DNA from: Rhodanobacter humi
GTDB lineage: Bacteria > Pseudomonadota > Gammaproteobacteria > Xanthomonadales > Rhodanobacteraceae
Length of the DNA stretch: 64,000 nt
Direction of reading: 5' to 3'
NCBI RefSeq assembly: GCF_041107455.1
Contig: NZ_JBGBPY010000001.1
Coordinates: 3,410,001 to 3,474,000 of the forward strand
A program made the translations under genes and the position numbers. Under the pieces are notes generated by a model, which was given only the letters and a program-made list of their open reading frames with translations, had not been told where the DNA came from and did not search any database. Positions 38,260-54,958 of this stretch are shown one piece after another; position 1 is the stretch's first letter, and every line of letters begins with the position of its first letter.

Positions 38260-39555
38260 GTGTCGATGCAGACGCTGACATTGGCGGTACTCGGCCGGCA
38301 GGCCGCGCAATTCGGCAGCCGCAGCCGGAAAGTCTTTCCGGAGGCTGGCGGCAGCATCGGCCGTTCCGAGGATTGCGAATGGGTGCTCGGCGCGCCCGGC
38401 GTGTCGCGCATCCACGCGATGGTGCGCTACCTCAACGGCATCTATTTCATCGAGGACCGCAGCACCAACGGCATGCTGCTCAACGGTGCGCCGCTGCCCA
38501 GGGGCGAACCCTCCGCGCTGAAGGACGGCGACCGCCTGCAGATCGACACCTTCGAGATCTCGGTGCAGGTGCAGGCGCCGGGCCAGGCCGCCGAGGCGCC
38601 GGCCGCACCCGCACCGGCGATGGCACCGGCGCCGCTGCCGGGCGATCCGCTGGATTTCGGCTTGTCCGACCTGCTGGCGCCGGCGCCGGCCGCCGCCGCC
38701 GCGGGCGCCAGCCTGATACCCGACTCCGCCGCGGCCGGCGGCGACCTCGACCCGCTGAGTTTCCTCGACGCGCCCTACGCGACGCCGGTGGCGGAGCCCG
38801 CGCCGCCGCAGTCGGCGCCGATTCCCAGCTGGAACCACACGGCTGGCAGCGCCGACCACTTCCGCCCGCCGGTGACCGACGTGCAACGCCAGGCGCAGGT
38901 GCTGCCGGAGAACTGGGACCTGACCATGGGCGATTTCGCGCCCAAGGCGGAGCCGGCCGCGCCTGTCGTGCCACCCGCCGCGCCACCGGCGGCCGCTGCG
39001 TTTGCCGCGCCGGCGGCGACGGCCTTGCCGGCAGAGCTGGAGCAGATCCTGCACATCGTGGCCGACGGCGTGATGGACGTGCTGCGTGCCCGCGCCGAGA
39101 TCAAGAACACCTTCCGCCTGCCGGTGACCATCATCCAGCGCTCGGAGAACAACCCGCTGAAGTTCGCGCCCACCGCGGACGAGGCGGTGCAGCGCATCCT
39201 GGCGCCCACCGGGCCGGCCTTCCTGTCCGGCAGCGCCGCGTTCCAGGACGCCTTCGAGGACATCCGCTGTCACCAGATGGCAATGCTGGCCGGCGTGCGC
39301 GCCGCCTTCGAATCGCTGCTGGTGCACTTCAATCCCGACCGTTTCGAGCACGAGGCCGACGGCGGCGCCAAGCGTGCGGCGTTCGGCGGCAAGGGCCGCT
39401 ACTGGGACCGCTATCGCGAGCACTTCGAGGAGTTGATGGGCAATCCCGACGAATGCTTCCGCCGCCTGTTCGGCGACGAGTTCGCGCGCGCCTACGAGGA
39501 ACAGCTGGCGCGATTGAAGTCGGTACGACGGGCGGAACAGGCGCGCCGCCCCTGA
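38260..39555 (+). CDS. tagH: T6SS FHA-domain protein TagH (Fha)
   Basis: 431 residues from GTG 38260 (ATG 38266 is possible; GGGAG spacing favours GTG). The N-terminal FHA domain has all phosphothreonine-contact residues: GR at 34-35, Ser49 and His52 in VSRIHAMV, Asn70-Gly71 in STNG. A long Ala/Pro linker (about 105-240) leads to the C-terminal TagH domain with the FSGS-type LSGSAAFQDAFEDIRCHQMAML block. It should read kinase-made phosphothreonines and switch on assembly. TRV-like motifs in both kinases and in TssL are candidate ligands. Confidence 0.93.
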   Translation: MSMQTLTLAVLGRQAAQFGSRSRKVFPEAGGSIGRSEDCEWVLGAPGVSRIHAMVRYLNGIYFIEDRSTNGMLLNGAPLPRGEPSALKDGDRLQIDTFEISVQVQAPGQAAEAPAAPAPAMAPAPLPGDPLDFGLSDLLAPAPAAAAAGASLIPDSAAAGGDLDPLSFLDAPYATPVAEPAPPQSAPIPSWNHTAGSADHFRPPVTDVQRQAQVLPENWDLTMGDFAPKAEPAAPVVPPAAPPAAAAFAAPAATALPAELEQILHIVADGVMDVLRARAEIKNTFRLPVTIIQRSENNPLKFAPTADEAVQRILAPTGPAFLSGSAAFQDAFEDIRCHQMAMLAGVRAAFESLLVHFNPDRFEHEADGGAKRAAFGGKGRYWDRYREHFEELMGNPDECFRRLFGDEFARAYEEQLARLKSVRRAEQARRP

Positions 39556-40936: not shown

Positions 40937-42289
40937 ATGAATACTCCGAAAGGTCCGTTTGACGACGATCCGATGCGCGACGCCACCGTGGTGCGCCCGC
41001 GTGGCGCCGCGCCCGCGCCGATACCTGCGCCCGCGCCGGTCGCGCCGCCGGTGGCCGCGCCTGCGCCCGCGCCGCGCGGCGTGGCCGCTACGCCGGCCGA
41101 GATCAGCGCCTTCCTCGGCGGCGGCATGAACCCGCTGGTGCAGGCGGCCAGCCCCTTGCTGCTGCTCGCGGTGCAGCTGCGCCACAGCGCCACGCCGCCG
41201 GACGCGACCCATCTGCGCGAGCAGGCGGTGGCCCAGGTGCGCAAGTTCGAGGCCCACGCGCAGCAGGCGAACATCGCCCAGCAGACCGCGCTGGCCGCGC
41301 GCTACGTGCTGTGCACCATGCTCGACGAGGCGGTGCTCAATGCGCCGTGGGGCGAGCAGAGCGGCTGGGCGCAGCAGACCTTGCTGGTGACCTTCCACGG
41401 CGAATCCTACGGCGGCGCGAAGTTCTTCCAGATCCTCGAACGCCTGTGCGCGGATTTCTCGCGCCACCTCGACCTGATCGAGCTGATGTACATCTGTCTC
41501 GCGCTGGGCTTCGGCGGGCGCTACCTGATCGAGGCGGGCGGGCGCGCCAAGCTGGCCGACATCCAGGAAGACCTGTACCGGCGCATCCGCGCGCAGCGCG
41601 CGCCGGCCGCACAGGAACTGGCGCCGCACTGGCGCGGCATCCAGGACAAGCGCAATCCGCTGATCCGCTACGTGCCGCTGTGGGTGATCGTGGCCGCGGC
41701 GGCCTGCGTGCTGCTGGGTGCCTACCTGTATTTCCACACGCGATTGAACACGGGCTCTGCACCGGTCAGCGCCGAGCTCGCGCAGATCGGGCTGGAAGGC
41801 GCCACGCCGCCGGCCGCCCAGCAGCTGGACAAGACCAATCCGCCGCCGGCGCATCCCACGCTGAAGCAGCTGCTGGCGCCGGAAGAGCAGGCCGGCCAGC
41901 TCGCCATCGTCGAACAGGGCAACGGCCGCGAGCTGGTGCGGCTGTCCGCCACCGGCATGTTCACCTCCGGCGGCGTGGACGTCGCCGATACCGAGTTGCC
42001 GTTGCTGCACAAGATCACCGCGGCGCTGAACCAGGTGCCGGGGCGGGTGATCGTGGTGGGGCATACCGACGACCAGCCGATCCGCTCGCTGAAGTTCAAG
42101 GACAACTTCGCGTTGTCCGCGGCGCGCGCGCGTGCAGTGCAGCAGGTGCTCGGCGAAGGCCTGGACAACCCCGGCCGGCTCGAGGCCAGCGGCGCCGGCG
42201 ACTCGCAACCGATCGCACTGCCGCCGAACCTGCCGGCGAATCGTGCGCGCAATCGGCGCGTGGAGCTCATGTATATCCCCGAGGGTTGA
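40937..42289 (+). CDS. tssL: T6SS membrane protein TssL/DotU with OmpA-like domain
   Basis: 450 residues. A disordered Pro/Ala N terminus contains RDATVVRPRG with Thr17. The DotU domain covers about 55-240 (NPLVQAASPLLLLAVQLR, LCTMLDEAVLNAPWG). One span, LWVIVAAAACVLLGAYLYF, lies at about 248-266, and an OmpA-like peptidoglycan-binding domain at about 330-450 (VVGHTDDQPIRS, NRARNRRVEL). In Agrobacterium TssL an N-terminal threonine is phosphorylated by PpkA and bound by Fha; Thr17 is the obvious equivalent here. Confidence 0.95.
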   Translation: MNTPKGPFDDDPMRDATVVRPRGAAPAPIPAPAPVAPPVAAPAPAPRGVAATPAEISAFLGGGMNPLVQAASPLLLLAVQLRHSATPPDATHLREQAVAQVRKFEAHAQQANIAQQTALAARYVLCTMLDEAVLNAPWGEQSGWAQQTLLVTFHGESYGGAKFFQILERLCADFSRHLDLIELMYICLALGFGGRYLIEAGGRAKLADIQEDLYRRIRAQRAPAAQELAPHWRGIQDKRNPLIRYVPLWVIVAAAACVLLGAYLYFHTRLNTGSAPVSAELAQIGLEGATPPAAQQLDKTNPPPAHPTLKQLLAPEEQAGQLAIVEQGNGRELVRLSATGMFTSGGVDVADTELPLLHKITAALNQVPGRVIVVGHTDDQPIRSLKFKDNFALSAARARAVQQVLGEGLDNPGRLEASGAGDSQPIALPPNLPANRARNRRVELMYIPEG

Positions 42290-42293
42290 ACCA

Positions 42294-45200
42294 GTGGCCA
42301 AGATTCTGAGTTTGCTGAAAACCGGCTGGTTCATCACCCTCGTCGGCATCGTGCTGCTGGCGGTGCTGATCTGGGTGGGCGGTCCGTACCTGGGCATCGG
42401 CGCATCGCAGCCGCTGGCCGGCGTGGCGGCGCGCCTGCTGCTGATCGTGCTGATCGTGGTGGTGTGGCTGGCGATCCTGCAGATCCGCGCATGGCGCGCG
42501 CGCGGCAAGGCGCAGCAGATGTCCGGCGAACTGGCCGGGCAGGGTGCCCAGGCCGGCGACGGCGACCAGCGCAGCGCGGCCGAGCGCAGCCAGCTGCAGG
42601 CGCGTTTCCAGGAGGCGGTGGATACGCTGCGCAAGACCCGCCGCGGCGGCAACCTGTATGCGCTGCCGTGGTACGTGGTGATCGGCCCGCCGGGCTCGGG
42701 CAAGAGCACCTTGCTGCAGAACTCCGGGCTCAACTTCCCGCTGTCCGAACGCTTCGGCAAGGAGGCGCTGCGCGGCGTCGGCGGCACCCGCAACTGCGAC
42801 TGGTGGTTCACCGACGAGGCGGTGTTCCTCGACACCGCCGGCCGCTACACCATGCAGGATTCCGACCGCGCCGCCGATGCCTCGGCATGGGGCGAGTTCC
42901 TGCAGTTGCTGCGCAAGTACCGCAAGCGCCGGCCGATCAACGGCGTGGTGATCGCGATGAGCATGTCCGACCTGCTCACGCTGGACGAGGCCGGCCTCGC
43001 CGAACACATCCAGGCGATCCGGCGCCGGCTGGACGAGCTGGCCACGCACCTGCGCATCGGCGTGCCGGTGTACCTCAGTTTCACCAAGTGCGATCTGGTC
43101 GCCGGCTTCGGCGAGTTCTTCGACGACCTCAACCCGGAACTGCGCAGCCAGGTGTGGGGTTTCTCGTTCCCGCTGGACGCGACGATGGACGGCAGCGCGC
43201 CCAAGCGTTTCGGCGAGGAGTTCGACCTGCTGCTGCGCCAGCTCGATACGCGCATCCTCGACCGCCTGCATGCCGAGCGCGACCGCAACCGGCGCGCGGC
43301 GATCCTCTCGTTCCCCCAGCAGCTGGCCGCGCTGCGCGAGATCGCGCGGCGCTTCGTGGAAGGCGTGTTCACCGGCCACGCCTATGCCGCGCCGCCGCTG
43401 CTGCGCGGCGTCTACCTCACCTCGGGCACCCAGGAAGGCACGCCGATCGACCGCATGATGGGTGCAGTGGCGCGCACCTTCGGCGTGGACGCGGCGCAGC
43501 TGCACGTGCCCGGCGCGCAGCGGCGCACCTTCTTCGTCGAGCGGCTGCTGAAGGAAGTGCTGTTCGGCGAGTCGGGCTTCGCCGGCACCAATCCCGCGCT
43601 GGAGCGGCAGAAGGTGCTGCTGCAGATCGCCTCCTACGCGGGCGTGCTGCTGCTGACCGTGCTGCTGCTGGTCGGCTTCGGCACCAGCTACGGGCGCAAC
43701 CGCGATTACCTCGGCCAGGTGCAAACCGCGCTGCAGGCTTACCCGGCGAAGAGCGATGTCGCCGGCGCCACGACCCAGAAGGAATATTTCGCCCGCGTGC
43801 TCGCTCGGCTGGAAGGCCTGTCCGCCGTGCAGGACGCGGCGAACAAGTACCAGGCGCACGTGCCGATGGGCATGCGTTTCGGCCTTTACCAGGGCGGCGC
43901 GGTGGGCGAGGAGGTGCACGACGCCTACCTGCGCGAGTTGAACGGCCTGCTGTTGCCGGGTGTGGCCGCGCAGTTCCGCAGCGGGCTCACCGGCAACGCC
44001 GGCGATCCGCAGGCGCTGTACTACTACCTCAAGGGCTACCTGATGCTGGGCGAACCGCAGCACCAGAACGCCGACGAGCTGGCCGCGCTCACCGACATCG
44101 AGTGGCGCAAGGTGTTCCCGGGCGACCCGGTGCTGCAGCAGGCGCTGGCGAAGCACTTCCATGCGCTGGTGGCCGAGCCGGGCCGGCTGCGTGCGCTGAG
44201 CCTGGACCAGACCCTGGTCGAGCAGGCGCGCAACACCTTGCGCACCGCCGACCTGCCCACCCTGATCTACGGCAGCCTCAAGCTCGGCGCGGGCAGCACG
44301 GACTACCCGCCGCTGCAGCTGGACAAGGCGCTGGGCCTGCTCGGCAACGTGTTTGTCCGCAAGAGCGGCGCGGCGTTGTCCGAGCCGATCCCGGCGCTGT
44401 ACACCCAGCCGATGTTCCAGTACGAGGCGAGCAAGGGCGTCGCGCAGGCGGTGGACCAGTTCGCCAAGGACGACTGGGTGTTCGGCGCCACGAAGATCGA
44501 CGCCCTGCAGAAGGCCCGGCTCACCCAGCAGGTGCTGGCGCTGTACGAGCAGGACTACATCAAGGCCTGGGACGGGTTGCTCGCCGACCTCGAATTGCAG
44601 CCGGTCGCCAGCATCCAGGATGCGAGCGCGATCGCCGCCAAGCTGTCCGGGCCCAGCTCGCCGCTGAAGGCGCTGCTGAACACGGTGCGCGAGAACACCA
44701 GCGACATGCTGAAGGCGCCGCCGCAGAGCGGCGAGGACAAGGCGCTGGCCGGCGCACAGCAGGCGGCGGAGAAGAAGGCGGCGCAGAAGCTCACCCAGAA
44801 CGCGCTGGCCCGCGCGCTGGCCTCGTCGGGCGGCGGTGCTGCCGCCGCGCCCGCGGAGCAGCCGGGCGCGGCGATCAGCGCGCACTTCGCCACGCTGGAC
44901 CAGTTGAGCGCCGGTGCGCCGGGCGCCGCGCCGATCGACCAGACGCTGCAGGCGCTCGACCAGTTGAGCAAGACGCTGCTGACCATGACCGATTTCAGCA
45001 ACGCCGCCGGCCAGCCCAACCCGCAACTGCTGCTGGCGCAGCAGCAGGCGTCGCAACTGCCGGCCCCGGTGTCCGGCTGGGTGGCTTCGCTCACCGGCAA
45101 GAGCGCCTCGCTGGTGGCCAGCGGCACCAAGGGCGCGCTGGGCGACCAGTTCCAGCAGGCGGTGGGCAAGGATTGCGCGAGCTTCGTGCGCGGTCGCTAC

Positions 45201-45818
45201 CCGTTCGCGCCGGACAGCCGCACCGACATCCCGCTGCAGAACTTCGGCGAGCTGTTCGGCAACGGCGGCAGCTTCGACAGCTTCAACAAGCAGACCCTGT
45301 CCAAGTTGGTCGACGCCAGCGGCCGCAACTGGCAGTGGAAGACCGGCCCCGGTGCGGTGGCCGGCCCGCCGGGCATCCTGGCGCAGGCGCAGATGGCCGA
45401 CGACATCCGCCAGATGTATTTCCGCAACGGCAACCAGCCCGAGGTGGATTTCACCGTGCAGGCGCCGCTGCTGGATCCCGGCATCGGCAAGCTGGAGTTC
45501 GATGTGGACGGCCAGAAGTTCACTTACCAGCCCGGCGGCGCCACCAGCATGGCGATGAAATGGCCGGGGCCGCAGCCGGGCCATGTCACGGTCTCCGCCT
45601 GGGACAGCTCGGGCACCCTGCTCAGTACCTTCGACTACCAGGGCGACTGGGCGTTCTTCCGCGCGTTGCAGGCGGCGCACTTGCAGAAGCAGTCGGACCT
45701 GAGCTTCCTCGCCAGCTTCAACTTCGGCGGCAAGACGGCGAAGCTGACGATCCAGGCCAGCAACCTGAAGAACCCATTCCTCAACACCGAAGTGCAACGT
45801 TTCCGGTGCGGGGGGTGA
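42294..45818 (+). CDS. tssM: T6SS membrane protein TssM/IcmF
   Basis: 1174 residues from the GTG at 42294, with GAGGG just upstream inside the tssL end. Two N-terminal spans (about 10-30 and 42-62) precede a cytoplasmic NTPase-like domain with Walker A GPPGSGKST (about 132) and FLDTAGRYT. A third span, AGVLLLTVLLLVGFG (about 447), leads to the large periplasmic part. The C-terminal domain, which normally contacts TssJ, is present (MKWPGPQPG, WDSSG, DWAFFRAL). Confidence 0.95.
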   Translation: MAKILSLLKTGWFITLVGIVLLAVLIWVGGPYLGIGASQPLAGVAARLLLIVLIVVVWLAILQIRAWRARGKAQQMSGELAGQGAQAGDGDQRSAAERSQLQARFQEAVDTLRKTRRGGNLYALPWYVVIGPPGSGKSTLLQNSGLNFPLSERFGKEALRGVGGTRNCDWWFTDEAVFLDTAGRYTMQDSDRAADASAWGEFLQLLRKYRKRRPINGVVIAMSMSDLLTLDEAGLAEHIQAIRRRLDELATHLRIGVPVYLSFTKCDLVAGFGEFFDDLNPELRSQVWGFSFPLDATMDGSAPKRFGEEFDLLLRQLDTRILDRLHAERDRNRRAAILSFPQQLAALREIARRFVEGVFTGHAYAAPPLLRGVYLTSGTQEGTPIDRMMGAVARTFGVDAAQLHVPGAQRRTFFVERLLKEVLFGESGFAGTNPALERQKVLLQIASYAGVLLLTVLLLVGFGTSYGRNRDYLGQVQTALQAYPAKSDVAGATTQKEYFARVLARLEGLSAVQDAANKYQAHVPMGMRFGLYQGGAVGEEVHDAYLRELNGLLLPGVAAQFRSGLTGNAGDPQALYYYLKGYLMLGEPQHQNADELAALTDIEWRKVFPGDPVLQQALAKHFHALVAEPGRLRALSLDQTLVEQARNTLRTADLPTLIYGSLKLGAGSTDYPPLQLDKALGLLGNVFVRKSGAALSEPIPALYTQPMFQYEASKGVAQAVDQFAKDDWVFGATKIDALQKARLTQQVLALYEQDYIKAWDGLLADLELQPVASIQDASAIAAKLSGPSSPLKALLNTVRENTSDMLKAPPQSGEDKALAGAQQAAEKKAAQKLTQNALARALASSGGGAAAAPAEQPGAAISAHFATLDQLSAGAPGAAPIDQTLQALDQLSKTLLTMTDFSNAAGQPNPQLLLAQQQASQLPAPVSGWVASLTGKSASLVASGTKGALGDQFQQAVGKDCASFVRGRYPFAPDSRTDIPLQNFGELFGNGGSFDSFNKQTLSKLVDASGRNWQWKTGPGAVAGPPGILAQAQMADDIRQMYFRNGNQPEVDFTVQAPLLDPGIGKLEFDVDGQKFTYQPGGATSMAMKWPGPQPGHVTVSAWDSSGTLLSTFDYQGDWAFFRALQAAHLQKQSDLSFLASFNFGGKTAKLTIQASNLKNPFLNTEVQRFRCGG

Positions 45819-45822
45819 CTGC

Positions 45823-47385
45823 ATGCCGAATCCGACAGGGGCGGGTTTTTTCGGCAAACTTCCAGGCACTGGCGACTTCGTGCAGCGCCGCTTGCCGGCG
45901 TCTTTCGTGGACGTGTGGGATCGCCACTTCGAGCAGGCGGTAAGCGCCAGCCGCGCGCGGCTGGGCGACGACTGGCCGCAGGCCTGGCGCGATGCCGCGG
46001 TGTGGCGCTTCGTGCTGGCGCCGGGCATCTGCGGCGAGCTGGCCTGGGCCGGCGTGACCGGGGCGGCGACGGACCGGGTGGGGCGCTGCTTCCCGATGGT
46101 GATCGCCGCGCCGCTCGCGGATGAAGCCGCCACCACGGCGGCATTGCGCAATGATGCCTGGTTCGCCGCCGCCGAACGCGCGCACCGCAAGGCGCAGGCG
46201 AGCGGCGAGGGCGTGGAGCCGTTCGATGCACGCGTCGTCGCGCTGCCGGACCTGCTTGCCGCGGCGGTTGCCGCGGATGCCGTCGTGCCGCAGCCCGACT
46301 GGGGCAGTGCGGGTCTCTGGCGCCTGCCGCTGCCGACGCTCGTCGATACGGCGTGGCTATCCGCGCTGTGGGCCGGGTTGTCGGCGTTGCCGGGGCATGC
46401 GCTGTGGTGGACCACGGGCGCGCCGCGGATGCCGCCCGGCGTGGTGGTCAGCCGCGGCCTGCCCGAGCCGGCCGCGCATGCCGGCATGCTCGACGCGGCG
46501 CATGCCGACGTGCCTTTGCAGACACCGGGTGCCGCCACCGCGTTGCGCACGCCGCCAGCGCCTGCGGCGCCGGCGACCGCGTCGATGCCGGCGGCCACGA
46601 TGCCGGCACCTACGCCGGTGCGCTTGCCCGACGACTTGTCCGAACTGTTCGCCGACCTGGCGCCGCATCTGGACGCGGTCGAACCCGGTGCGGCGGAGAC
46701 CACGCAGCGCGCCGCCGACGTGGGCGGCGCGCGCGTGCTGCATCGCTACGACTGCGCGCTGACCATGGTGGTGGCCGACGACGGCGCGCCCGATCCGCGC
46801 CGGCAGGCGGCCGCGTCGGTCAGCGAACTGATCGGCCGCTTCGTGCCCAGCGATTTCGTCGCCGGCATGCAGGCGCTGCGCACGCGCCTGCTGGTGCTGC
46901 ACACGCGCCTGCGCCAGCTGGCCGAGGACCACGCCGAGCCGGTGCACGAGGACGGCGCGGTGATCGCGGTGCGCGTCACCGGGCGCTGGGCCGACCTGCT
47001 GCGCATCGGCACCGCGAGCGCCTGGCACTGGCGCGCCGGCCAGCTGCATCCGCTGTTCGCCGCCGGCGGCGACGAGTTGTCGGCCGATGGCGCGGGGCTG
47101 GGCGGCGAGCTGGACGACCTGCTGTTCAGCCGCACCTCGGCGGTGGCGCCGGGGCTGGGCGCGCCCGCGCAACCGATCTGCGACGAGATCGTCCGCGAGA
47201 TCGACACCGGCGACCGCCTGCTGCTGCTGGCCACCCGCAAGCTGGCGGAACTGCCGGCGTCGCTGCTGGCCGAGGCGCTGGCCTTGCCGTCGCCGCATGC
47301 CGCGTGCGCGCACATCGCCGCTGCGGCCGGGCTGGGAATCCACGCGGCCGGTTGGCCGCTGGCCGTGATCGAGGTGCAGCCATGA
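45823..47385 (+). CDS. tagF: T6SS regulator TagF with a degenerate PP2C-like C-terminal domain
   Basis: 520 residues, more than twice a plain TagF. Residues 1-200 are the TagF/ImpM domain (GFFGKLPGTGDFVQRRLP, then FPMVIAAP). After a Pro/Ala linker, residues 295-520 align with the neighbouring PppA block by block: VVADDGAPD for its VADGLGGHA, RIGTASAWHW for its VGDSRAY, and GDRLLLLATRKLAEL for its LLCSDGINKEL. The metal-binding aspartates are changed, so it should be a pseudophosphatase. TagF represses T6SS; in Agrobacterium TagF is fused to a PppA domain, which supports this reading. The stop overlaps pppA. Confidence 0.85.
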   Translation: MPNPTGAGFFGKLPGTGDFVQRRLPASFVDVWDRHFEQAVSASRARLGDDWPQAWRDAAVWRFVLAPGICGELAWAGVTGAATDRVGRCFPMVIAAPLADEAATTAALRNDAWFAAAERAHRKAQASGEGVEPFDARVVALPDLLAAAVAADAVVPQPDWGSAGLWRLPLPTLVDTAWLSALWAGLSALPGHALWWTTGAPRMPPGVVVSRGLPEPAAHAGMLDAAHADVPLQTPGAATALRTPPAPAAPATASMPAATMPAPTPVRLPDDLSELFADLAPHLDAVEPGAAETTQRAADVGGARVLHRYDCALTMVVADDGAPDPRRQAAASVSELIGRFVPSDFVAGMQALRTRLLVLHTRLRQLAEDHAEPVHEDGAVIAVRVTGRWADLLRIGTASAWHWRAGQLHPLFAAGGDELSADGAGLGGELDDLLFSRTSAVAPGLGAPAQPICDEIVREIDTGDRLLLLATRKLAELPASLLAEALALPSPHAACAHIAAAAGLGIHAAGWPLAVIEVQP

Positions 47386-48101
47386 CCCTGCATTACCAGT
47401 CCGCCGGCCGCACCGAGACCGGCAAGGTGCGCCGACACAACGAGGACTCGATCCTGCTGCGCGACGACGTCGGCCTGTGGGTGGTCGCCGACGGCCTCGG
47501 CGGCCACGCCGCGGGCGATTACGCCAGCCAGATGATCGTCGAGCGGCTGGGCGCGCTGCCGCGCACGGGCGGCGTGTTCGATTTCATCGAGGCGATCGAG
47601 GACTGCCTGCAGCAGATCAACGCCGACCTGATCGCCACCGCGCTGGAGCGCGGCAGCGACATCATCGGCTCCACCGTGGTGCTGCTGGTGCACGACAAGG
47701 ACTTCATGCTGTGCGGCTGGGTGGGCGACAGCCGCGCCTACTGCAACGAGGACGGCCAGCTGCGCCAGATCACCCGCGACCACGTGCACGGCACCAAGGA
47801 CGATGTCACCCAGTTCGGCGGCGGCACGGCGACGGCGCAGGCCGGCGCCGGCGTGCTCAGCCGCGCGGTGGGCGCCGAGGAGCGCCTGTTCATGGACTGG
47901 GTGGTGGCGAGCAACCGCCCCGGCACGCAGTTCCTGCTCTGTTCCGACGGCATCAACAAGGAGCTGGGCGACGAGGAGCTCGACCGCGAATGCCGCCAGC
48001 TGCCCGACCCGTCGATGCTGCTGGCGCGCCTGTTCGACCTGTCGCTGCAGCGCGCCGCGCGCGACAACATTTCCGCCGTGATCGTGCGGCTGCAGGATTG
48101 A
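47382..48101 (+). CDS. pppA: T6SS PP2C-type protein phosphatase PppA
   Basis: 239 residues, an active-looking PPM phosphatase: RRHNEDS, VADGLGGHAAGD, VGDSRAY, SDGI and DNISAV supply the metal-binding aspartates. It should remove phosphates put on threonines by the two kinases encoded downstream and so switch the T6SS off. The ATG overlaps the tagF stop by 4 bases. The first kinase gene starts 17 bases after its stop. Confidence 0.94.
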   Translation: MTLHYQSAGRTETGKVRRHNEDSILLRDDVGLWVVADGLGGHAAGDYASQMIVERLGALPRTGGVFDFIEAIEDCLQQINADLIATALERGSDIIGSTVVLLVHDKDFMLCGWVGDSRAYCNEDGQLRQITRDHVHGTKDDVTQFGGGTATAQAGAGVLSRAVGAEERLFMDWVVASNRPGTQFLLCSDGINKELGDEELDRECRQLPDPSMLLARLFDLSLQRAARDNISAVIVRLQD

Positions 48102-48117
48102 TGGACGGGTCGCGCCG

Positions 48118-50151
48118 ATGACGGCTCTGCTCCGACTGCTCGACGACTTCCAGGCCCGGCGGCTCACGCTGCCGGGGCTGTTCGATGCGCTCGGTGCACG
48201 CGGTGCGGCGACGGCGGACGAGCATCGCGCCGAGCTGGAGCAGGTCGAGGCGATGGCGGCCGACGGCCGGCTGGACCCGGCGATCGCCAAGGCAGTGGTC
48301 GCCAGGCTGCGCACGCTGCAGGCGCCGGTCGACGACGAGGCCACCCGGGTGCAGGTCGATGCGCATGCCGCCGACCTGCCGCGCGACGCCGAAGCCACCC
48401 GGGTGGAGCCGGCATCGCGGCCTGCCGGACCGCCTGCCGAGCCATCTGCCGGGGACGTCACGCGGGTGGCGCCCGTGGCCACGACGCCACCGGATGCGTC
48501 GGTCGGCGCGGCCACCGGCACGCACCCGACCGCCTCCATCGGCAGCTTCAGCCGTACCGATCTGGAGCGGATGGTGGCGGCGGATGCCGAGGTCGCCGCC
48601 GTCGGCATGCTGCTGAAGGGCCGCTTCCTGCTGGAACGCGAGATCGGCCGCGGCGGCATGGGCGTGGTCTACCTTGCGCGCGACGAACGCAAGGTGGAGG
48701 CGCGCGACCGTGATCCCTACGTGGCGGTGAAGGTGCTGAACGACGAGTTCCGCCGCCATCCCGATTCGCTGATCGCGTTGCAGCGCGAGTCGCGCCGCGC
48801 GCAGCTGCTGGCGCACGACAACATCCTGCGCGTCTACGACTTCGACAAGGACCGCACCATCGTCTTCATGACGATGGAGTACATCGACGGCACCGATCTG
48901 CGCACGCTGATCCGCGAGCGCGCCTACCACGGCCTGCCGCTGGCCGAGGCGCGCCCGTTGATCGAGGGCATGGCCCATGCGCTGCAGCGCGCGCACGCGG
49001 CCGGCATCGTGCATTCCGACTTCAAGCCCGGCAACGTGATGGTGACGCGCGAGGGCGTGCCCAAGGTGTTCGACTTCGGCATCGCGCGGGCGGCCAAGCG
49101 GCTGGGCGAAGCCAGCGGCGAGGAGACGGTGTTCGACGCCGGCACGCTGGGTGCGCTCACTCCCGCCTACGCCAGCCTGGAGATGACCCGGGGCAAGGAG
49201 CCGTCGCCCTCCGACGACATCTACGCGCTGGGTTGCGTGGCGTTCGAGCTGCTCACCGGCAAGCACCCGTTCGACAAGGTCAGCGCCGAGGTCGCGTTGA
49301 AGGAAGGACGCAAGCCGCCGCCGGTATCGGGCCTGACCCGGCGCCAGTACAAGGTGCTGTGCGACAGCGTCGCGTTCCATGCCGGGCAGCGGCCGAAGAG
49401 CGTCGAAGCGCTGGTCGAGGGCCTGCGCGACATCCGCCTGCGCGAACGCGCCGGCCGACCGCTGGCCTATGCGCTGGCCGGCATCCTGCTGCTGCTGGCC
49501 GGCGGCTGGTTCGCGCTGGGCCAGTGGCGCGCCCGGCAGATGGCCGAGGTCGTCGCCGGCTTCCAGCCCGGCGATGCCCATCGCTACGCGAACGAGACCC
49601 AGGCGTTCGCCGCGCTGGCCGGCCTGGGCGAGGACGGGCGACGGCAGCTGGTGCTGGCGCATGGCGACGTGGTGCAGTCGTACCTGCTCGAGCGCGTGGA
49701 TGCGTACTGGAATCCGGCGCGGGGGCGGCACGATTACGCCGCGGCCAGCCGGGTCTTCGCGTTGCCCGCGGAGTTGCACCTGTTCCTGCCGCAGCTGGAG
49801 CTCAGGCGCCTCGCGGTGGACAAGGAAAAACACGACCTGGACCAGCCGAAGCAGTCGGCGACGCCGGCAAATCCATCGTCCCCGCCGGTGGCCGCCGCCG
49901 CTTCGCCGCCGGCCGCGACGCCAGCCGCGGTCGCGGTACGTCCCGACGCCGACGCGGCGCGGATGCGCAAGGTGGTGGCGGAGCTGCTGCGGGAAGGCGA
50001 GCAGAACTACGCGCAACAGAAGTATTCCGCGGCGATTGCCAACGCGAAGGCCGCACTGCAGATCGCTCCCGGGGATACTGGGGCCAGGCAACTGCTGCAA
50101 CGTGCCCAGCAGGCGCAGCAGCGGGCGATGAGCAACATCACGATCAACTGA
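48118..50151 (+). CDS. ppkA: T6SS membrane Ser/Thr kinase, PpkA-like
   Basis: 677 residues. A short helical N domain (1-70) is followed by a linker with three motifs, ATRVQV (Thr76), ATRVEP (Thr94) and VTRVAP (Thr115). The kinase domain runs from about 168 to 440: EIGRGGMGVVYLA, Lys205 in VAVK, HSD at 299-301 in place of HRD, and DFG at 319. One span (about 449-467) follows, then a periplasmic part ending in TPR-like helices (AQQKYSAAIANAKAALQIAP). The HSD variant makes it a non-RD kinase. It is expected to phosphorylate itself and TssL and recruit TagH. Confidence 0.9.
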   Translation: MTALLRLLDDFQARRLTLPGLFDALGARGAATADEHRAELEQVEAMAADGRLDPAIAKAVVARLRTLQAPVDDEATRVQVDAHAADLPRDAEATRVEPASRPAGPPAEPSAGDVTRVAPVATTPPDASVGAATGTHPTASIGSFSRTDLERMVAADAEVAAVGMLLKGRFLLEREIGRGGMGVVYLARDERKVEARDRDPYVAVKVLNDEFRRHPDSLIALQRESRRAQLLAHDNILRVYDFDKDRTIVFMTMEYIDGTDLRTLIRERAYHGLPLAEARPLIEGMAHALQRAHAAGIVHSDFKPGNVMVTREGVPKVFDFGIARAAKRLGEASGEETVFDAGTLGALTPAYASLEMTRGKEPSPSDDIYALGCVAFELLTGKHPFDKVSAEVALKEGRKPPPVSGLTRRQYKVLCDSVAFHAGQRPKSVEALVEGLRDIRLRERAGRPLAYALAGILLLLAGGWFALGQWRARQMAEVVAGFQPGDAHRYANETQAFAALAGLGEDGRRQLVLAHGDVVQSYLLERVDAYWNPARGRHDYAAASRVFALPAELHLFLPQLELRRLAVDKEKHDLDQPKQSATPANPSSPPVAAAASPPAATPAAVAVRPDADAARMRKVVAELLREGEQNYAQQKYSAAIANAKAALQIAPGDTGARQLLQRAQQAQQRAMSNITIN

Positions 50152-50164
50152 AGGAGGAGCGGTC

Positions 50165-50854
50165 ATGCATGCACACGAATTTCGCGGCACGGGACTCCCG
50201 GCGATGGCGATCGCGGTGACCCTGCTCGGCGGCTGTGCCGACATGGGCGGCCTCGGCACGCCGGGTGCGGCCACTGCAAACGCCGGCACCGGCAGCACGA
50301 CGGCGCAGGAATGCAATCCGGTGGTGACCGGCGCCATCGGCGCGCTCGCCGGCTCGCTGTTCGGCAAGGGCAAGGGGCACCTGGCGGGCGCGGCGATCGG
50401 CGCCGGCGTCGGCGCGTTCGCCTGCATGGCATACAACTACCACAGCCGGCGGGTTCGCGACGCGCAGGCGGTGGAGGCGCAGTACCGGCAGCAGCGCGGT
50501 GCCTTGCCCGCGGCCAACACGATCGATTCCTACCAGAGCGCGCTGGTTCCGGGCGGCACGGTGCAGGGCGGCGGCAAGGTGGAGATGCAATCGCGCGTCA
50601 CCCTGTTGCGCGGTGCGCACGACGTGCCGCCCCAGCTGAAGGAACAGCTGACCCTGTACTCGCCCGACGGCAAGCAACTGGCCACCGCCACCAAGGACGT
50701 CGACGCGATCAACGGCACCGGCGAGTACGAGAGCAGCTTCGGTTTCAACCTGCCCAAGGGCATCCAGGAAGGTCGCTACAAGATGAGCTCGACGCTGTAC
50801 ATGGACGGCCAGAAGGTACGCACCAACGACGTGCCCATGCTGGTGGTCGGCTGA
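50165..50854 (+). CDS. Lipoprotein between the two kinases
   Basis: 229 residues. The N terminus ends in a lipobox, LLGGC, with Cys24 as the lipidation site. A glycine-zipper stretch, VVTGAIGALAGSLFGKGKG and GAAIGAGVGAFACMAYN (about 53-88), could pack in a membrane. The C-terminal half (GKVEMQSRVTLLRGAHDVP to the end) looks like beta-rich secreted protein. AAGGAGGAGCGGTC is a very good ribosome site. It is not recognisably a TssJ, yet it is the only lipoprotein gene in the cluster, so it is the first candidate for an outer-membrane anchor or for a sensor partner of the kinases, like TagQ. Confidence 0.75.
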   Translation: MHAHEFRGTGLPAMAIAVTLLGGCADMGGLGTPGAATANAGTGSTTAQECNPVVTGAIGALAGSLFGKGKGHLAGAAIGAGVGAFACMAYNYHSRRVRDAQAVEAQYRQQRGALPAANTIDSYQSALVPGGTVQGGGKVEMQSRVTLLRGAHDVPPQLKEQLTLYSPDGKQLATATKDVDAINGTGEYESSFGFNLPKGIQEGRYKMSSTLYMDGQKVRTNDVPMLVVG

Positions 50855-50948
50855 TGCGCGGAACACGCACATGGTTCGGCGCGCATTCCGCGGCGACGCC
50901 CCCGACACGATCCCCCCATCCCTGGACTGACATGCAAGACCGCTGCCC

Positions 50949-53900
50949 ATGAGTTCCATCGCCGAACTGATTGCCGACTACCAGACCAAGCGGCTCTCGC
51001 TGCCAGGGCTGTTCGAGGCGCTGGCCGCGCGCGGCGCGCTGCCGGACGATGCCCTGCGCGAGGAGCAGGCGCTGCTCGACGCGATGGCGGCCGATGGCCG
51101 GATCGAGCCGACGCTGGCGCGCGCGCTCGTCGCGAAGCTGCGCAGCCTGCAGCCGCCGTCCTCCGCGCCGCCCGTGGTGCCGGACGACGAGGTGACCCGG
51201 GTGCAGGTGGGGAGCCACGCGGCCGCGCCGCCGCCGGATGCCGAGATGACGATGGTGCAGCCCGCCTCGCGTCCGCCGGCGCCATCGGCTGACGCGGATG
51301 CCACCGTGGTCGCGCCCGCCTCGCGTCCGCCCGCGGCCGATGCGCCGCAGGCCACCGCCGTCACCGGCACCCAGGGCACCGCCTCCAGCAGCAGCTTCAA
51401 CCGCTCCAGCTGGGAAAAGGTGGCCGAGGCCGAAGGCGGCGACTACGCCACCGTGGGCATGCTGCTGAAGGGCCGCTTCCTGCTGGAACGCGAGATCGGC
51501 CGCGGCGGCATGGGCGTGGTCTACCTTGCGCGCGACGAGCGCAAGGTGGAGGCGCGCGACCGCGATCCGTACGTGGCGGTGAAGGTGCTGAACGACGAGT
51601 TCCGCCGCCACCCCGATTCGCTGATCGCGCTGCAGCGCGAGTCGCGCCGCGCGCAGCTGCTCGCGCACGACAACATCGTGCGCGTCTACGACTTCGACAA
51701 GGATCGCACCATCGTCTTCATGACGATGGAGTACATCGACGGCACCGACCTGCGTACGCTGATCCGCGAGCGCGCCTACCACGGCATGCCGCTGGCCGAG
51801 GCGCGCCCGCTGATCGAGGGCATGGGCTGGGCGCTGAAGCGCGCGCACGCGGCCGGCATCGTGCATTCCGACTTCAAGCCCGGCAACGTGATGGTGACGC
51901 GCGAAGGCGTGCCCAAGGTGTTCGACTTCGGCATCGCCCGCGCCGGCAAGCACCTCAGCGAGGCTACCGGCGAGGAGACGGTGTTCGACGCCGGCACGCT
52001 GGGCGCGCTGACGCCGGCCTACGCCAGCCTGGAGATGATTCAGGGCAAGGAGCCGTCGCCCTCCGACGACATCTACGCGCTGGGCTGCGTCACTTTCGAG
52101 CTGCTTACCGGCAAGCACCCGTTCGACAAGGTCAGCGCCGAGGTCGCGTTGAAGGAAGGGCGCAAGCCGCCGCCGGTGCCGGGCCTGACCCGGCGCCAGT
52201 ACAAGGCGCTGTGCGACGCGGTGGCCTTCCATGCCGAGCAGCGCCTGCAGAACGCGGGCGCGCTGATCGACGGCCTGCGCGAGATCGGCCTGCGCGAGCG
52301 GCTGGTGCCGTGGCTGGGCTACGGCGCGGTCGCCGCCGTGGTGATCGCGGGCGGCACCTGGGGCACGCTCAGCTACCTGCACCAGCACCACCTGTCGCAG
52401 GTGATTGCGCGCTTCGCCGCCGGCAACCCGCACCACTACGCGAACGAGAACGAGGCGATGCAGGCGCTGGACGGCCTCGGCGAGGACGACCGCAAGCGGC
52501 TGGTGCTGGACCAGGGCGAGGCGATCCAGAACTTCCTGCTCGCACGCATCGACGCCTACTGGAATCCGGCCCAGGGGCGCTACGACTTCCCCGGCGCCCA
52601 GCACGTGTTCCAGCTGCGCGACCAGCTGAAGCTGTATTCGCCCAAGCTGGATACCCGGCGCACCGCGGTGACCCAGCAGAAGAACGACCTGCTCAACACG
52701 CTGGACACCGAGCTGTCGCAGCGCATCGCCGCCGGCGCGATCTTCGAGAGCCAGCCCGACAACGCGGTGGCCACGCTGGACCGCATCCGCGCGATCGATC
52801 CGCACAGTGCGCTGCTGCACAACGCCGAGCTGGAGCTGAAGTACGACATCGCGATCGGCCAGTCGCTGAGCGCCGACCACGTGGACGAGGCGCGCCAGCG
52901 GCTCGCGCTCGCCACGCGGTTGTTCCCGGACTCGTCGCGGCTGAAGCAGCGCGGGGCGCAATTGGCCGCGCTCGCCGCCACCGCTGCACCGGCCGCGGCG
53001 GCGCCCGCGCCGGGTGCGCCGGTGCAGGGCATCCCGCAGGCGCGCAGCGCGCTGGCCGCGCTGGTGGCCGCGCCATCGGCGAATGCGCAGTGGCAGCAGT
53101 CGGTGTCCGCCGCGATGGCGGTGCTGCAGCATGACCAGTCGCCGGAAACGCGCAAGCTGGTGGATGCGCTGGGCGCCGCCATCGCCGGCAGTGCGGGCCA
53201 GCAAACCGATGCCATGCACCTGCCGCAGGACCTGGCGCTGGTGAACTTCGGCCTGCAGTACGCGCCGCAGTCGGCGCCGCTGCTGGCCCAGCGCGACAAG
53301 CTGACCGCGCTGCAGAGCCAGGCGCAGGCACAACTCGATCAAGAGGCAGCTACGGCCGAGGTGGCCACGCGCATCGAGTCGGTGCGGCGCGCGGCCGCGG
53401 CCGACGACAGCGCCAAAGCGCTGGAATCGCTGACGCGCATCCGCAGCCTGCAGCCGGACCATCCCTTCCTCGCCAAGGAGGGTCCGCAACTGGTGGCCTC
53501 GGCCTATCTGGGACAGGCCGACGATGCGTTCCAGCGCGGCAAGTACCAGGCCGCATCCAGCCTGCTGACGCAGGGCCTGAAGGCGCTGGGCAACCGCAGC
53601 GACCTGCGCAATGCGCAGGCGCGCTACGAACTGGCCGCCGCGCTGCTGAAGGCCAACGGCCAACCGCTGGCCGATGCCGACTACCAGCGCCTGCGCAGCC
53701 AACTGGCCGCCGCGCGCAAGGCCGATGCGCAGGGTCTGGATGAGCTGGAGTCCGAGCTGAAGCAGCACGGCCACCTGGCGCAGGGCAGCCTGGCCGCCTT
53801 GCTGGACAGCCTCAAGCCGAGCGCGACCGCTGCAGCGGCGGCGGCGGCGCCCGCCGCGCCCGTGCCGGCTGCGCCCACCGCACCGGCCGCCGTCGCGCCC

Positions 53901-54629
53901 GGCCATGCGCCAACCGAGGCGGCGGCGACCAAGGCTGCTCCGGGCGGCGCCGCCAAGCCCGCGGCCGCGACGGCCGGCAATGCGGCGCCGACCGCCGCCG
54001 TGGCCGGCAACGATCCCTGCGCGCGTCCGGACCTGGCCGGCAAGGGCCGCGCCTGCGTCGACACCCTGGGTGCCAGTGGCCGCGGGCCGGCCCTGGTGGT
54101 GATTCCCGGCATCGGCGGCGGCAAGCCGTATGCGATGTCGCGCACCGAGGTCACGGTGAGCGAATTCAACCGCTACTGCCGCGCCAGCCATGCCTGCGCC
54201 GGCGTGTCCGACAGCGACGGCCAGTTGCCGGTGAGCAACATCAGCCTGGCCCAGGCCAGGGCCTACGCGCAGTGGCTGAGCAGCACCAGCGGTTACACCT
54301 ACCGCCTGCCCAGCGACACCGAGTGGATGCACGCAGCGCACGCCAGTGGCGGCTGGAAGCAGTCGCCGGACAGCAACTGCATCCCGCCGTCTTCCAGCGA
54401 CGACAGCAGCGGCGGACCGATTTCCGCGCTGGGCCGCGAGCCGAATCCCTGGGGACTGGTGAACATGACCGGCAACGTCTGGGAGTGGGTGACCAGCGGC
54501 GGCGGCGTGATCGTGCGCGGCGGCAGCTACAACAGCTACTGGTCCGATTGCACGGTGGACAGCCATCGGAGCGACAATGGCGGTGCGCAGAAAGATGTCG
54601 GGTTCCGGGTGCTGCGGGAGCTGAAATGA
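50949..54629 (+). CDS. Ser/Thr kinase fused to a formylglycine-enzyme-like domain
   Basis: 1226 residues. The N domain and kinase domain (about 175-447) are nearly identical to the kinase encoded at 48118, including HSD (306-308) and DFG (326). The linker again holds three threonine motifs: VTRVQV (Thr83), MTMVQP (Thr101) and ATVVAP (Thr119). A span at about 455-475 is followed by ~450 residues of periplasmic helical repeats, an Ala/Pro hinge, and a C-terminal FGE/SUMF1-type domain (about 1045-1226) with SRTEVTVSEFNRYC, YRLPSDTEWMHAA, WGLVNMTGNVWEW and VIVRGGSYNSYWSDC. The last is probably a ligand-binding or structural use of the fold rather than a true formylglycine enzyme. Confidence 0.88.
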   Translation: MSSIAELIADYQTKRLSLPGLFEALAARGALPDDALREEQALLDAMAADGRIEPTLARALVAKLRSLQPPSSAPPVVPDDEVTRVQVGSHAAAPPPDAEMTMVQPASRPPAPSADADATVVAPASRPPAADAPQATAVTGTQGTASSSSFNRSSWEKVAEAEGGDYATVGMLLKGRFLLEREIGRGGMGVVYLARDERKVEARDRDPYVAVKVLNDEFRRHPDSLIALQRESRRAQLLAHDNIVRVYDFDKDRTIVFMTMEYIDGTDLRTLIRERAYHGMPLAEARPLIEGMGWALKRAHAAGIVHSDFKPGNVMVTREGVPKVFDFGIARAGKHLSEATGEETVFDAGTLGALTPAYASLEMIQGKEPSPSDDIYALGCVTFELLTGKHPFDKVSAEVALKEGRKPPPVPGLTRRQYKALCDAVAFHAEQRLQNAGALIDGLREIGLRERLVPWLGYGAVAAVVIAGGTWGTLSYLHQHHLSQVIARFAAGNPHHYANENEAMQALDGLGEDDRKRLVLDQGEAIQNFLLARIDAYWNPAQGRYDFPGAQHVFQLRDQLKLYSPKLDTRRTAVTQQKNDLLNTLDTELSQRIAAGAIFESQPDNAVATLDRIRAIDPHSALLHNAELELKYDIAIGQSLSADHVDEARQRLALATRLFPDSSRLKQRGAQLAALAATAAPAAAAPAPGAPVQGIPQARSALAALVAAPSANAQWQQSVSAAMAVLQHDQSPETRKLVDALGAAIAGSAGQQTDAMHLPQDLALVNFGLQYAPQSAPLLAQRDKLTALQSQAQAQLDQEAATAEVATRIESVRRAAAADDSAKALESLTRIRSLQPDHPFLAKEGPQLVASAYLGQADDAFQRGKYQAASSLLTQGLKALGNRSDLRNAQARYELAAALLKANGQPLADADYQRLRSQLAAARKADAQGLDELESELKQHGHLAQGSLAALLDSLKPSATAAAAAAAPAAPVPAAPTAPAAVAPGHAPTEAAATKAAPGGAAKPAAATAGNAAPTAAVAGNDPCARPDLAGKGRACVDTLGASGRGPALVVIPGIGGGKPYAMSRTEVTVSEFNRYCRASHACAGVSDSDGQLPVSNISLAQARAYAQWLSSTSGYTYRLPSDTEWMHAAHASGGWKQSPDSNCIPPSSSDDSSGGPISALGREPNPWGLVNMTGNVWEWVTSGGGVIVRGGSYNSYWSDCTVDSHRSDNGGAQKDVGFRVLRELK

Positions 54630-54958
54630 GCGAGCGGGAACGACGGGTCAACCAGGGGCTGCGTGTCCTCGACGAGGCCCACTACAGCGGGCGGATCAAC
54701 CGCGAGGAATACCGCAAGCGGCGTCGCCAGCTGCTCGGCTCGCTGTGCGACAGCCACGGCATCACCGCCCGCAACACCTTGCGTACCCGGGTCACCCAGC
54801 AGGGCGGGCGCGTGGCCCAGGCGGCGGTCGCGCCGGCCGAGTCCCAGCCGGCGCCCTTCGCCGCCCGACATGCCGTGGCCTGGAAACCGCTGCTGGCCTT
54901 CGCGCTCGGCCTGGTGCTGTGCGCGCTGCTCGTGTACTGGCTGCTGCGGGCGAACTGA
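54626..54958 (+). CDS. Small tail-anchored membrane protein after the kinase
   Basis: 110 residues. A basic helical cytoplasmic part (ERERRVNQGLRVLDEAHYSG, RINREEYRKRRRQLLGSL) is followed by a single C-terminal span, PLLAFALGLVLCALLVYWLL, ending RAN. The ATG shares ATGA with the kinase stop, so it is co-translated with it. Function is unknown; an accessory to the kinase in the inner membrane is the simplest idea. It is the last gene of the T6SS block. Confidence 0.75.
   Translation: MSERERRVNQGLRVLDEAHYSGRINREEYRKRRRQLLGSLCDSHGITARNTLRTRVTQQGGRVAQAAVAPAESQPAPFAARHAVAWKPLLAFALGLVLCALLVYWLLRAN

What the first reader, a model, noticed from the sequence alone, without database searches (positions are those of the whole stretch)
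40937..54629. Shared TRV-type threonine motifs link both kinases and TssL to the FHA protein
Each kinase has three spaced motifs of the form acidic-x-T-(R/M/V)-V-x-(P/V) before its kinase domain (Thr76/94/115 and Thr83/101/119). TssL has the same pattern near its N terminus (RDATVVRP, Thr17). The same locus encodes an FHA protein with intact phosphothreonine contacts. In Agrobacterium, Fha binding to phosphothreonine on TssL activates secretion. The sequence suggests a multi-dock scaffold: six kinase sites plus one TssL site competing for TagH.
Basis: partly seen in the sequence, partly recalled or inferred. Interest (0 to 1): 0.8.

Follow-up and report, generated by a model that had tools for sequence, protein, structure and literature searches.

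The report
Kinase tails share TssL's threonine motif
In a Rhodanobacter-like bacterium the two kinases that are thought to switch on a toxin-injecting nanomachine carry, in their tails, several copies of the same threonine motif found on the machine's membrane part, and relatives have kept those threonines while the surrounding tail drifted, which suggests that one phosphothreonine-reading scaffold can dock on all of them.

Summary
[DE]xT[RMV]Vx[PV] occurs at Thr76/94/115 of kinase 1, Thr83/101/119 of kinase 2 and Thr17 of TssL, and in none of eight neighbouring proteins scanned. It is not chance: 41 related kinase tails hold 83 hits against 0.15 in shuffles; in a relaxed pattern Thr is central in 93 of 93 matches. 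The rest of those kinases gives 0 hits in 40,084 residues. In an 11-sequence alignment only T76, T94, T115 and the +2/+4 residues of the last two are invariant in the tail. TssL carries a related motif in 67 of 71 loci whose FHA pocket keeps R, S and N, and in 1 of 12 that lost R or S. Among named relatives, 12 Xanthomonas loci lack the TssL site but keep both kinase sites invariant. Agrobacterium Fha binds the matching phosphopeptide DLPpTVVEI (PMC3953482, passages). Most likely, autophosphorylated kinase tails and TssL are alternative docks for TagH. Phosphorylation and binding are untested, competition is speculative, independent evolutionary events are few, and kinases of other lineages give mixed results.

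The parts
38260..39555 (+). FHA protein (TagH/Fha): FHA domain plus T6SS_FHA_C; pThr-pocket residues R35, S49, N70 present; no strict TRV motif of its own
   Evidence: Pfam PF00498 and PF20232; pocket read from alignment; motif scan
40937..42289 (+). TssL (DotU + OmpA domains)
   Evidence: Pfam PF09850, PF00691; the only DotU match found in the genome
40979..40999 (+). TssL motif DATVVRP, Thr17
   Evidence: related motif in 67 of 71 loci with an R+S+N FHA pocket
45823..47385 (+). TagF
   Evidence: Pfam PF09867
47382..48101 (+). PppA-type PP2C phosphatase
   Evidence: Pfam PF13672, PF00481
48118..50151 (+). Kinase 1 (PpkA-like Ser/Thr kinase): N-terminal helical region 1-68, tail about 69-162, kinase domain
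   Evidence: Pfam PF00069; low-confidence model: residues 3-68 helical at pLDDT 80-89, 71-145 coil at about 30
48337..48357 (+). Kinase 1 motif EATRVQV, Thr76
   Evidence: T76 invariant in 11 sequences, V78 nearly so
48391..48411 (+). Kinase 1 motif EATRVEP, Thr94
   Evidence: T94, V96, P98 invariant
48454..48474 (+). Kinase 1 motif DVTRVAP, Thr115
   Evidence: T115, V117, P119 invariant
50949..54629 (+). Kinase 2 (PpkA-like kinase with C-terminal FGE-sulfatase-like domain)
   Evidence: Pfam PF00069, PF03781
51189..51209 (+). Kinase 2 motif EVTRVQV, Thr83
   Evidence: aligns with K1 T76
51243..51263 (+). Kinase 2 motif EMTMVQP, Thr101
   Evidence: aligns with K1 T94
51297..51317 (+). Kinase 2 motif DATVVAP, Thr119
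   Evidence: aligns with K1 T115

Best explanation
This is a threonine-phosphorylation (PpkA-PppA-Fha-TagF) switch of a type VI secretion system in which the phosphothreonine-docking motif is carried by TssL (one site) and by the tails of two kinases (three sites each). Inferred cycle: an active kinase phosphorylates its own and its partner's tail threonines; the FHA domain of TagH docks on these phosphothreonines, gathering TagH at the kinase; the kinase phosphorylates TssL Thr17, and TagH passes to, or bridges to, the TssL membrane complex and licenses assembly; PppA resets the sites and TagF opposes. Shown here: the motifs, their Thr-only conservation inside fast-changing tails, the FHA pocket residues, the parallel with the known Agrobacterium ligand, and retention of kinase sites where the TssL site is missing. 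Inferred: phosphorylation of the kinase threonines, TagH binding to them, tail disorder, and the hand-over or bridging step.
For: Motif positions. 83 strict hits in 41 tails against 0.15 expected; T in 93 of 93 relaxed matches although the tails hold 408 Ser and 463 Thr. Only T76, T94, V96, P98, T115, V117, P119 are invariant among K1 residues 69-162 (7 of 21 motif columns, 0 of 73 others). Every scored locus with this kinase type has at least one kinase site, 35 of 35 and 47 of 47 in two overlapping sets, with no Ser version. TssL motif in 67 of 71 R+S+N-pocket loci, 6 of 12 R+S only, 1 of 12 R or S lost, 0 of 10 with no FHA found. In 12 Xanthomonas loci without the TssL site the kinase motifs are 14 of 14 invariant columns against 34 of 104 (gapped columns included) in the rest of the tail, with synonymous differences at four motif codons. 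Agrobacterium Fha binds DLPpTVVEI and shows no detectable binding to the unphosphorylated peptide (PMC3953482). In Acidovorax, kinase-dead PpkA binds Fha less, and Fha foci need an active kinase but not Fha T640 (PMC12607579), as expected if Fha reads an autophosphorylated kinase.
Against: No binding or phosphorylation data for these proteins. The association of TssL motif and pocket rests on few evolutionary events: 7 motif and 4 pocket changes on the TssL tree; 1 (R+S+N) or 3 (R+S) supported independent pairs, none contrary, none significant; for kinase-or-PppA presence against motif, 5 pairs, of which 4.2 on average show no difference, and against the R+S core 0.2 on average run the other way. 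Outside this kinase lineage, with Pro required at +4, kinases linked to a T6SS are no richer in the motif than unlinked ones (5 in 8,644 and 6 in 9,016 non-catalytic residues, against 7 in 13,020), and the 60 residues after the catalytic domain of unlinked kinases hold 4 against 0.14 shuffled, so part of the signal may be kinase preference rather than docking on TagH. The one affinity in the passage seen, for the Agrobacterium 8-mer and Fha7-309, is weak, printed as 2.15 mM. TagH has one FHA domain, so multivalency needs TagH oligomers. A Fha-PpkA contact could depend on catalytic residues for other reasons; the Acidovorax authors read it that way.
Confidence: 0.66

Rival explanations
1. The motif is only the kinase's preferred phosphorylation sequence: the tail threonines are autophosphorylation sites that tune kinase activity, and TagH reads TssL but not the kinase.
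For: The same kinase would phosphorylate both places, so a shared consensus is expected; unlinked kinases have such sites too, mostly near the catalytic domain; Thr-only use could reflect kinase choice. Retention in Xanthomonas fits this equally well.
Against: Conserved residues run to +4, and sites appear in up to 4 copies per kinase with varying number, more like a recruitment array than one regulatory site; kinase-dependent Fha-PpkA binding is reported in Acidovorax.
Confidence: 0.22
2. The tails do dock an FHA protein, but another one: the genome has two further FHA proteins, one encoded beside its own kinase.
For: Three FHA matches in the genome; L003 encodes an FHA protein with a GR...S..H...NG pattern next to kinase L007.
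Against: A TagH-type FHA gene was found in the fetched stretch of 33 of 35 order-set loci that have this kinase (the other two run out at the locus edge or were not resolved); the three other kinases of the genome lack the motif; TssL, a known Fha partner elsewhere, shares it.
Confidence: 0.07
3. Low-complexity linker repeats, copied by duplication, without function.
For: Pro/Ala-rich linkers; site number varies; kinase 1 and 2 are paralogues, 91% identical in the kinase domain.
Against: Shuffles give 0.15 against 83; no Ser version found; motif columns are invariant in Xanthomonas while the tail drifts; codons of the copies differ; TssL, an unrelated protein, has the same motif.
Confidence: 0.03

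Closest known systems
Agrobacterium tumefaciens PpkA - TssL pThr14 - Fha (PMC3953482 and PMC5995506, passages)
   Same: Kinase, TagF-PppA and Fha in the T6SS locus; phospho-site near the TssL N terminus in D-L-P-T-V-V-E-I, close to R-D-A-T-V-V-R-P here; the FHA pocket Arg and Ser matter (the double change abolishes Hcp secretion).
   Different: The passages seen describe one phosphosite, on TssL, and no docking array on the kinase; the authors found Thr14 not conserved in distant TssL proteins, whereas as a motif it recurs widely here.
PpkA - Fha switch: Fha1 Thr362 in Pseudomonas aeruginosa (PMC5995506 passage), Fha Thr438 in Serratia marcescens (PMC6082577 passage)
   Same: PpkA-PppA-Fha-TagF switch.
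   Different: The reported target is a Thr in Fha itself; the window's TagH has no strict motif. Unnamed f17 relatives carry QQTMIQP or QQTLVRP in Fha (T361 of 496 aa in L102), a plausible equivalent of Thr362 (inferred).
Acidovorax citrulli TssW-PpkA-Fha axis (PMC12607579, passages and section 7)
   Same: PpkA binds Fha, and binding is weakened by catalytic mutation; PpkA and Fha form foci.
   Different: No phosphothreonine docking sites on PpkA are described in the parts read; Acidovorax PpkA was not examined here.
Mycobacterial kinases docking FHA proteins through phosphothreonines near the kinase domain (recalled, not tested here)
   Same: Autophosphorylated kinase as an FHA landing site.
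   Different: Different pathway and motif; only sequence similarity of the FHA domain was seen here: best solved-structure matches are TB39.8 chains (entries 3po8, 3poa, 2lc1, 3oun), best E 2.1e-06.

Membership tests
T6SS threonine-phosphorylation pathway (PpkA-PppA-Fha-TagF) | Hanks-type kinase, PP2C phosphatase, FHA protein and TagF in one T6SS locus | tested here: met
   Pfam hits for all four plus DotU/TssL
T6SS threonine-phosphorylation pathway (PpkA-PppA-Fha-TagF) | Kinase phosphorylates a T6SS protein that FHA then binds | not testable with these tools
   needs biochemistry
Phosphothreonine-binding FHA domain | Pocket Arg, Ser and Asn | tested here: met
   R35, S49, N70 in TagH; aligned with TB39.8
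TssL docking site of the Agrobacterium type | Thr near the TssL N terminus in an acidic-x-x-T-V-V or acidic-x-T-V-V context | tested here: met
   T17 RDATVVRP against DLPpTVVEI
TssL docking site of the Agrobacterium type | Phosphorylated in cells and bound by Fha | not testable with these tools
   needs mass spectrometry and binding assays
Kinase-borne FHA docking array | Motif threonines conserved in an otherwise variable tail | tested here: met
Kinase-borne FHA docking array | Tail is disordered | tested here: inconclusive
   tail pLDDT about 30, but part of the kinase domain also modelled poorly
Kinase-borne FHA docking array | Specific to T6SS-linked kinases beyond this lineage | tested here: inconclusive
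   N-terminal tails: 12 against 0.48 shuffled in 34 linked kinases, 1 against 0.28 in 23 unlinked; but with Pro at +4 over all non-catalytic residues linked and unlinked do not differ
Kinase-borne FHA docking array | Phylogenetically independent co-change with the FHA pocket | tested here: inconclusive
   1 to 3 supported independent pairs of pocket and TssL motif, in the expected direction or unchanged

The most novel reading that the evidence does not exclude
One phosphothreonine docking code, roughly [D/E]-x-T-[V/R/I/Q]-[V/I/F]-x-P, is read by T6SS FHA scaffolds across Proteobacteria, and the kinase tail is a primary dock, not an accessory: self-phosphorylation turns the kinase into a multivalent landing pad that concentrates Fha/TagH and seeds assembly. 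The TssL dock can be lost (Xanthomonas) or doubled (Paraburkholderia), while the kinase dock persists. (Probability set at 0.35 rather than 0.4 after giving full weight to the mixed kinase controls.)
Probability: 0.35. Interest if true: 0.75.

Novelty: new variant of a known kind. Interest (0 to 1): 0.6.

Why it matters
How PpkA and Fha start T6SS assembly is described as elusive or limited in a paper read here (PMC12607579), and published targets (Fha in some species, TssL in others) look unrelated. A shared linear motif on TssL, on kinase tails and, in some lineages, on Fha itself would unify them, predict docking sites from sequence, explain why an active kinase is needed for normal Fha foci in Acidovorax, and supply natural variants (Xanthomonas) for separating the kinase dock from the TssL dock.

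Tried and rejected
Post-catalytic motif as a T6SS-specific feature: rejected. The 60 residues after the kinase domain hold 4 motifs against 0.14 shuffled in 23 unlinked kinases, and 3 against 0.28 in 34 linked ones. With Pro required at +4, all non-catalytic residues together show no difference: 5 in 8,644 (34 linked), 6 in 9,016 (15 linked, four of them re-fetched copies of the first set), 7 in 13,020 (23 unlinked).

Pocket-motif association as statistically independent evidence: Fisher p = 3.5e-9 by loci was not kept as a claim because on a TssL tree only 1 to 3 supported independent pairs exist. In one search a 75-residue cut and the need for an acidic or Asn residue upstream missed five TssL motifs (L078, L107, L132, L136, L143, seen); applies one wider rule to every locus, so that rule was chosen after seeing data; shuffled-tail expectations are given with it (6.1 of 71, 0.8 of 12, 0.3 of 12, 0.9 of 10).

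First pocket alignment misread L041, L050 and others because of long N-terminal ORF extensions; redone. L087 counts as 'lost' though its ORF begins at the locus edge, so the FHA domain may just be cut off. L062 and L063 count as 'no FHA', yet in L062 the end of an FHA gene sits at the locus edge and the named Xanthomonas melonis record with the contig length of L063 has FHA (L232); so at most 8 of those 10 are FHA-free cases.

Xanthomonas citri PknS (PMC13147305, passages) was considered as this kinase and rejected: 833 aa with an 83-residue N-terminal segment, acting on a sigma factor; the main kinases at the 12 Xanthomonas loci are about 1,200 to 1,350 aa as ORFs.

The structure model is of low confidence overall (mean pLDDT 60, pTM 0.34) and was not searched for folds.

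Rows dropped: seven of 54 named loci (L204, L215, L218, L220, L222, L224, L246) have no scored kinase, and weak kinase hits under 250 bits were left out; named second kinases are often cut by the flank, so site counts are lower bounds. In one search TssL counts of zero include L059, L060, L227 and L228, which have DATIM or DATVM (Met at +2). L204's TssL is cut at its N terminus. In one search the pre-kinase tails are a fixed 110 residues and may include a little upstream non-coding translation; the same holds for some phylum-set tails (for example L103, L155), and some of those kinases are cut by the locus edge. 60 places out of those listed were fetched.
Full report
What is there. The window is part of G000, a 4.15 Mb genome with one DotU/TssL match, three FHA matches and five Ser/Thr kinase matches. 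TssL is 98% identical to that of Rhodanobacter sp. C06. The locus runs FHA/TagH 38260-39555, TssK 39595-40935, TssL 40937-42289, TssM about 42294-45818, TagF 45823-47385, PppA 47382-48101, kinase 1 48118-50151, a small unknown ORF 50165-50854, kinase 2 50949-54629. Pfam supports FHA, TssL, TagF, PppA and both kinases; TssK and TssM are named from their place and recalled family features, not from a search.

The observation. All seven motifs are as reported, and no strict hit occurs in eight neighbouring proteins scanned, TssM included. Kinase 1 and 2 are paralogues with 91% identical catalytic domains but 56% identity in the tail, yet three motifs each.

Chance and conservation. In 41 related kinases beside tssL in the same order, the 110 residues before the catalytic domain hold 83 strict hits; shuffling gives 0.15 on average and at most 2 in 500 shuffles; 39 of 41 tails have one or more. 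With the relaxed pattern [DE].X.[VI].P the centre X is T in 93 of 93 matches although the tails hold 408 Ser and 463 Thr. From the catalytic domain on these kinases have 0 strict hits in 40,084 residues; TssL beyond its tail 0 in 19,004; FHA, PppA, TagF and TssK homologues 2 in 91,095. In an alignment of 11 kinases (both window kinases and nine from named loci, chosen by me) the only invariant columns among K1 residues 69-162 are T76, T94, V96, P98, T115, V117 and P119: 7 of 21 motif columns and 0 of 73 others. All 41 order-set kinases have 1 to 4 relaxed sites; the total per locus ranges from 1 to 7, and no Ser version occurs (35 loci). Of 53 kinases in 47 named loci, which partly overlap the first set, one has none, and no locus has none; that one, in L200, has near-matches with the acidic residue one place further up. 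So presence is conserved and number is not, as for clusters of short linear motifs.

TssL. The published Agrobacterium site is DLPpTVVEI, bound by Fha when phosphorylated, with no detectable binding otherwise; the 8-mer affinity in the passage is weak, printed as 2.15 mM (PMC3953482, passages). The authors saw no conservation of Thr14 in distant TssL proteins. As a motif it does recur: DATVVRP in Rhodanobacter and its neighbours, and DRTVIKP, EKTIIKP, DDRTQFMP, DRTVIMP, DDKTVIL and others elsewhere. With one rule for all loci it is found in 67 of 71 loci whose FHA pocket has R, S and N, in 6 of 12 with R and S only, in 1 of 12 that lost R or S, and in 0 of 10 with no FHA found (two of which do have FHA nearby); shuffled tails would give 6.1, 0.8, 0.3 and 0.9.

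FHA without a kinase. Eighteen FHA-bearing loci have no kinase or PppA hit in the fetched stretch: 12 have neither intact pocket nor motif, 2 have a motif without the Asn, 1 has the pocket only's narrow rule (L143, whose TssL has ERTVFQP), and 3 have both (L082, L104, L137). For L104 and L137 a kinase lies further out on the same contig. Eight of the 12 (L139, L141, L142, L144-L147, L149) have an eroded pocket, and two of those genomes, G481 and G607, have no Pkinase match at all. On a tree of the TssL domain these patterns come down to 7 motif and 4 pocket changes; 1 (R+S+N) or 3 (R+S) independent pairs are supported, none of which runs the wrong way, and none of this can reach significance; tests against kinase-or-PppA presence (5 pairs each) mostly show no difference, and for the R+S core an average of 0.2 pairs run the other way.

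A natural experiment. Each of their kinases keeps two sites. Among 54 named loci, 12 Xanthomonas records have no TssL motif but carry DATVVMP and DITRVQP in the kinase (FHA found in 11; the flank of L235 is cut short); Xanthomonas bonasiae and Xanthomonas sp. AmX2 have sites on both proteins. Across the 12, all 14 motif columns are invariant, against 34 of 104 columns in the rest of the tail, with synonymous differences at four motif codons, which points to purifying selection. The kinase sites are therefore kept for a reason that does not need the TssL site. Paraburkholderia and Burkholderia show the reverse balance: 10 of 13 such loci have two TssL sites under one pattern.

Other kinases, a mixed result. 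In 34 kinases found beside FHA genes across the phylum, the N-terminal tails hold 12 relaxed motifs (no Pro required) against 0.48 shuffled, such as DKTVV, DRTVI, DKTRI and DKTQF; 23 unlinked kinases hold 1 against 0.28. Three of the 12 belong to one kinase, L110, whose tail repeats DKTVFAP-like units with Phe at +2 while its TssL has DKTVFRQ, also Phe at +2: a second array whose flavour matches its TssL. Against this, with Pro at +4 and all non-catalytic residues counted, linked and unlinked kinases do not differ, and the stretch just after the catalytic domain is enriched in unlinked kinases too. The array is thus firmly established only in the window's kinase lineage.

Mechanism. FHA domains read phosphothreonine (established knowledge), which fits the Thr-only rule. 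The FHA domain of TagH has the pocket residues and matches TB39.8 chains best among solved structures by sequence. In Acidovorax, normal Fha foci require active PpkA but not the Fha phosphosite, and kinase-dead PpkA binds Fha less (PMC12607579, section 7); an Fha dock on the autophosphorylated kinase would explain both, although the authors suggest that catalytic residues stabilise the contact. I therefore favour kinase tails and TssL as alternative TagH docks, with hand-over or bridging as the working step. The main rival is that the motif is merely the kinase's substrate preference; sequence alone cannot exclude it, and the mixed kinase controls moved a little weight towards it.

Novelty. 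Ten full-text searches listed no paper whose title or abstract start, as shown, describes FHA docking sites on a T6SS kinase. Most listed papers were seen only as listings; passages of seven were seen, and one section of one of them; many journals are not held. The pathway is known; the kinase-borne array and the breadth of the TssL motif appear new within those limits.

Noticed in passing
L003/L007 (G000:C1:63498-67515): A second FHA gene lies directly beside a Ser/Thr kinase gene elsewhere in the genome; that kinase ends in ...QPTRIIQPPDAG..., a loosely similar threonine motif at its C terminus.
   Followed up: partly
48118-50151 and 50949-54629: Both kinases read HSDFKPGN where most Hanks kinases have HRD (non-RD type; naming recalled). 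The D, K and N are invariant in alignment A1.
   Followed up: no
50165-50854: Small ORF between the two kinase genes with a lipoprotein-like start (...LLGGCADMG) and a Gly-rich stretch; no Pfam match.
   Followed up: no
54626-54958: 110-aa ORF overlapping the last bases of kinase 2, charged start and hydrophobic C-terminal segment; no Pfam match.
   Followed up: no
L139, L141, L142, L144-L147, L149: FHA proteins of T6SS loci without a nearby kinase hit have lost the pThr pocket (Arg, Ser, Asn), so their FHA fold may no longer read phosphate.
   Followed up: yes
L113, L114, L131: TssL N terminus reads GGFVPPNPGG, like NRTFVMPSPGG of L086-L088 but with Gly in place of Thr; the pocket Asn of the FHA is also replaced there.
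   Followed up: partly
L100, L102, L103, L104, L137: Fha proteins carry QQTMIQP, QQTLVRP, SQTMIKP or DRTMIRP; T361 of 496 aa in L102 sits about where the published Fha1 Thr362 would be.
   Followed up: partly
L110: Kinase tail with repeated DKTVFAP/DATRFSP units and a TssL with DKTVFRQ plus DGTVVRP: Phe at +2 in both proteins.
   Followed up: partly
L179, L187-L190, L194: Unlinked kinases in other genomes also hold single motifs such as EATVVAP, EPTRMAP or DETLVAP, mostly close to the catalytic domain; they may be general kinase or FHA-docking sites.
   Followed up: no
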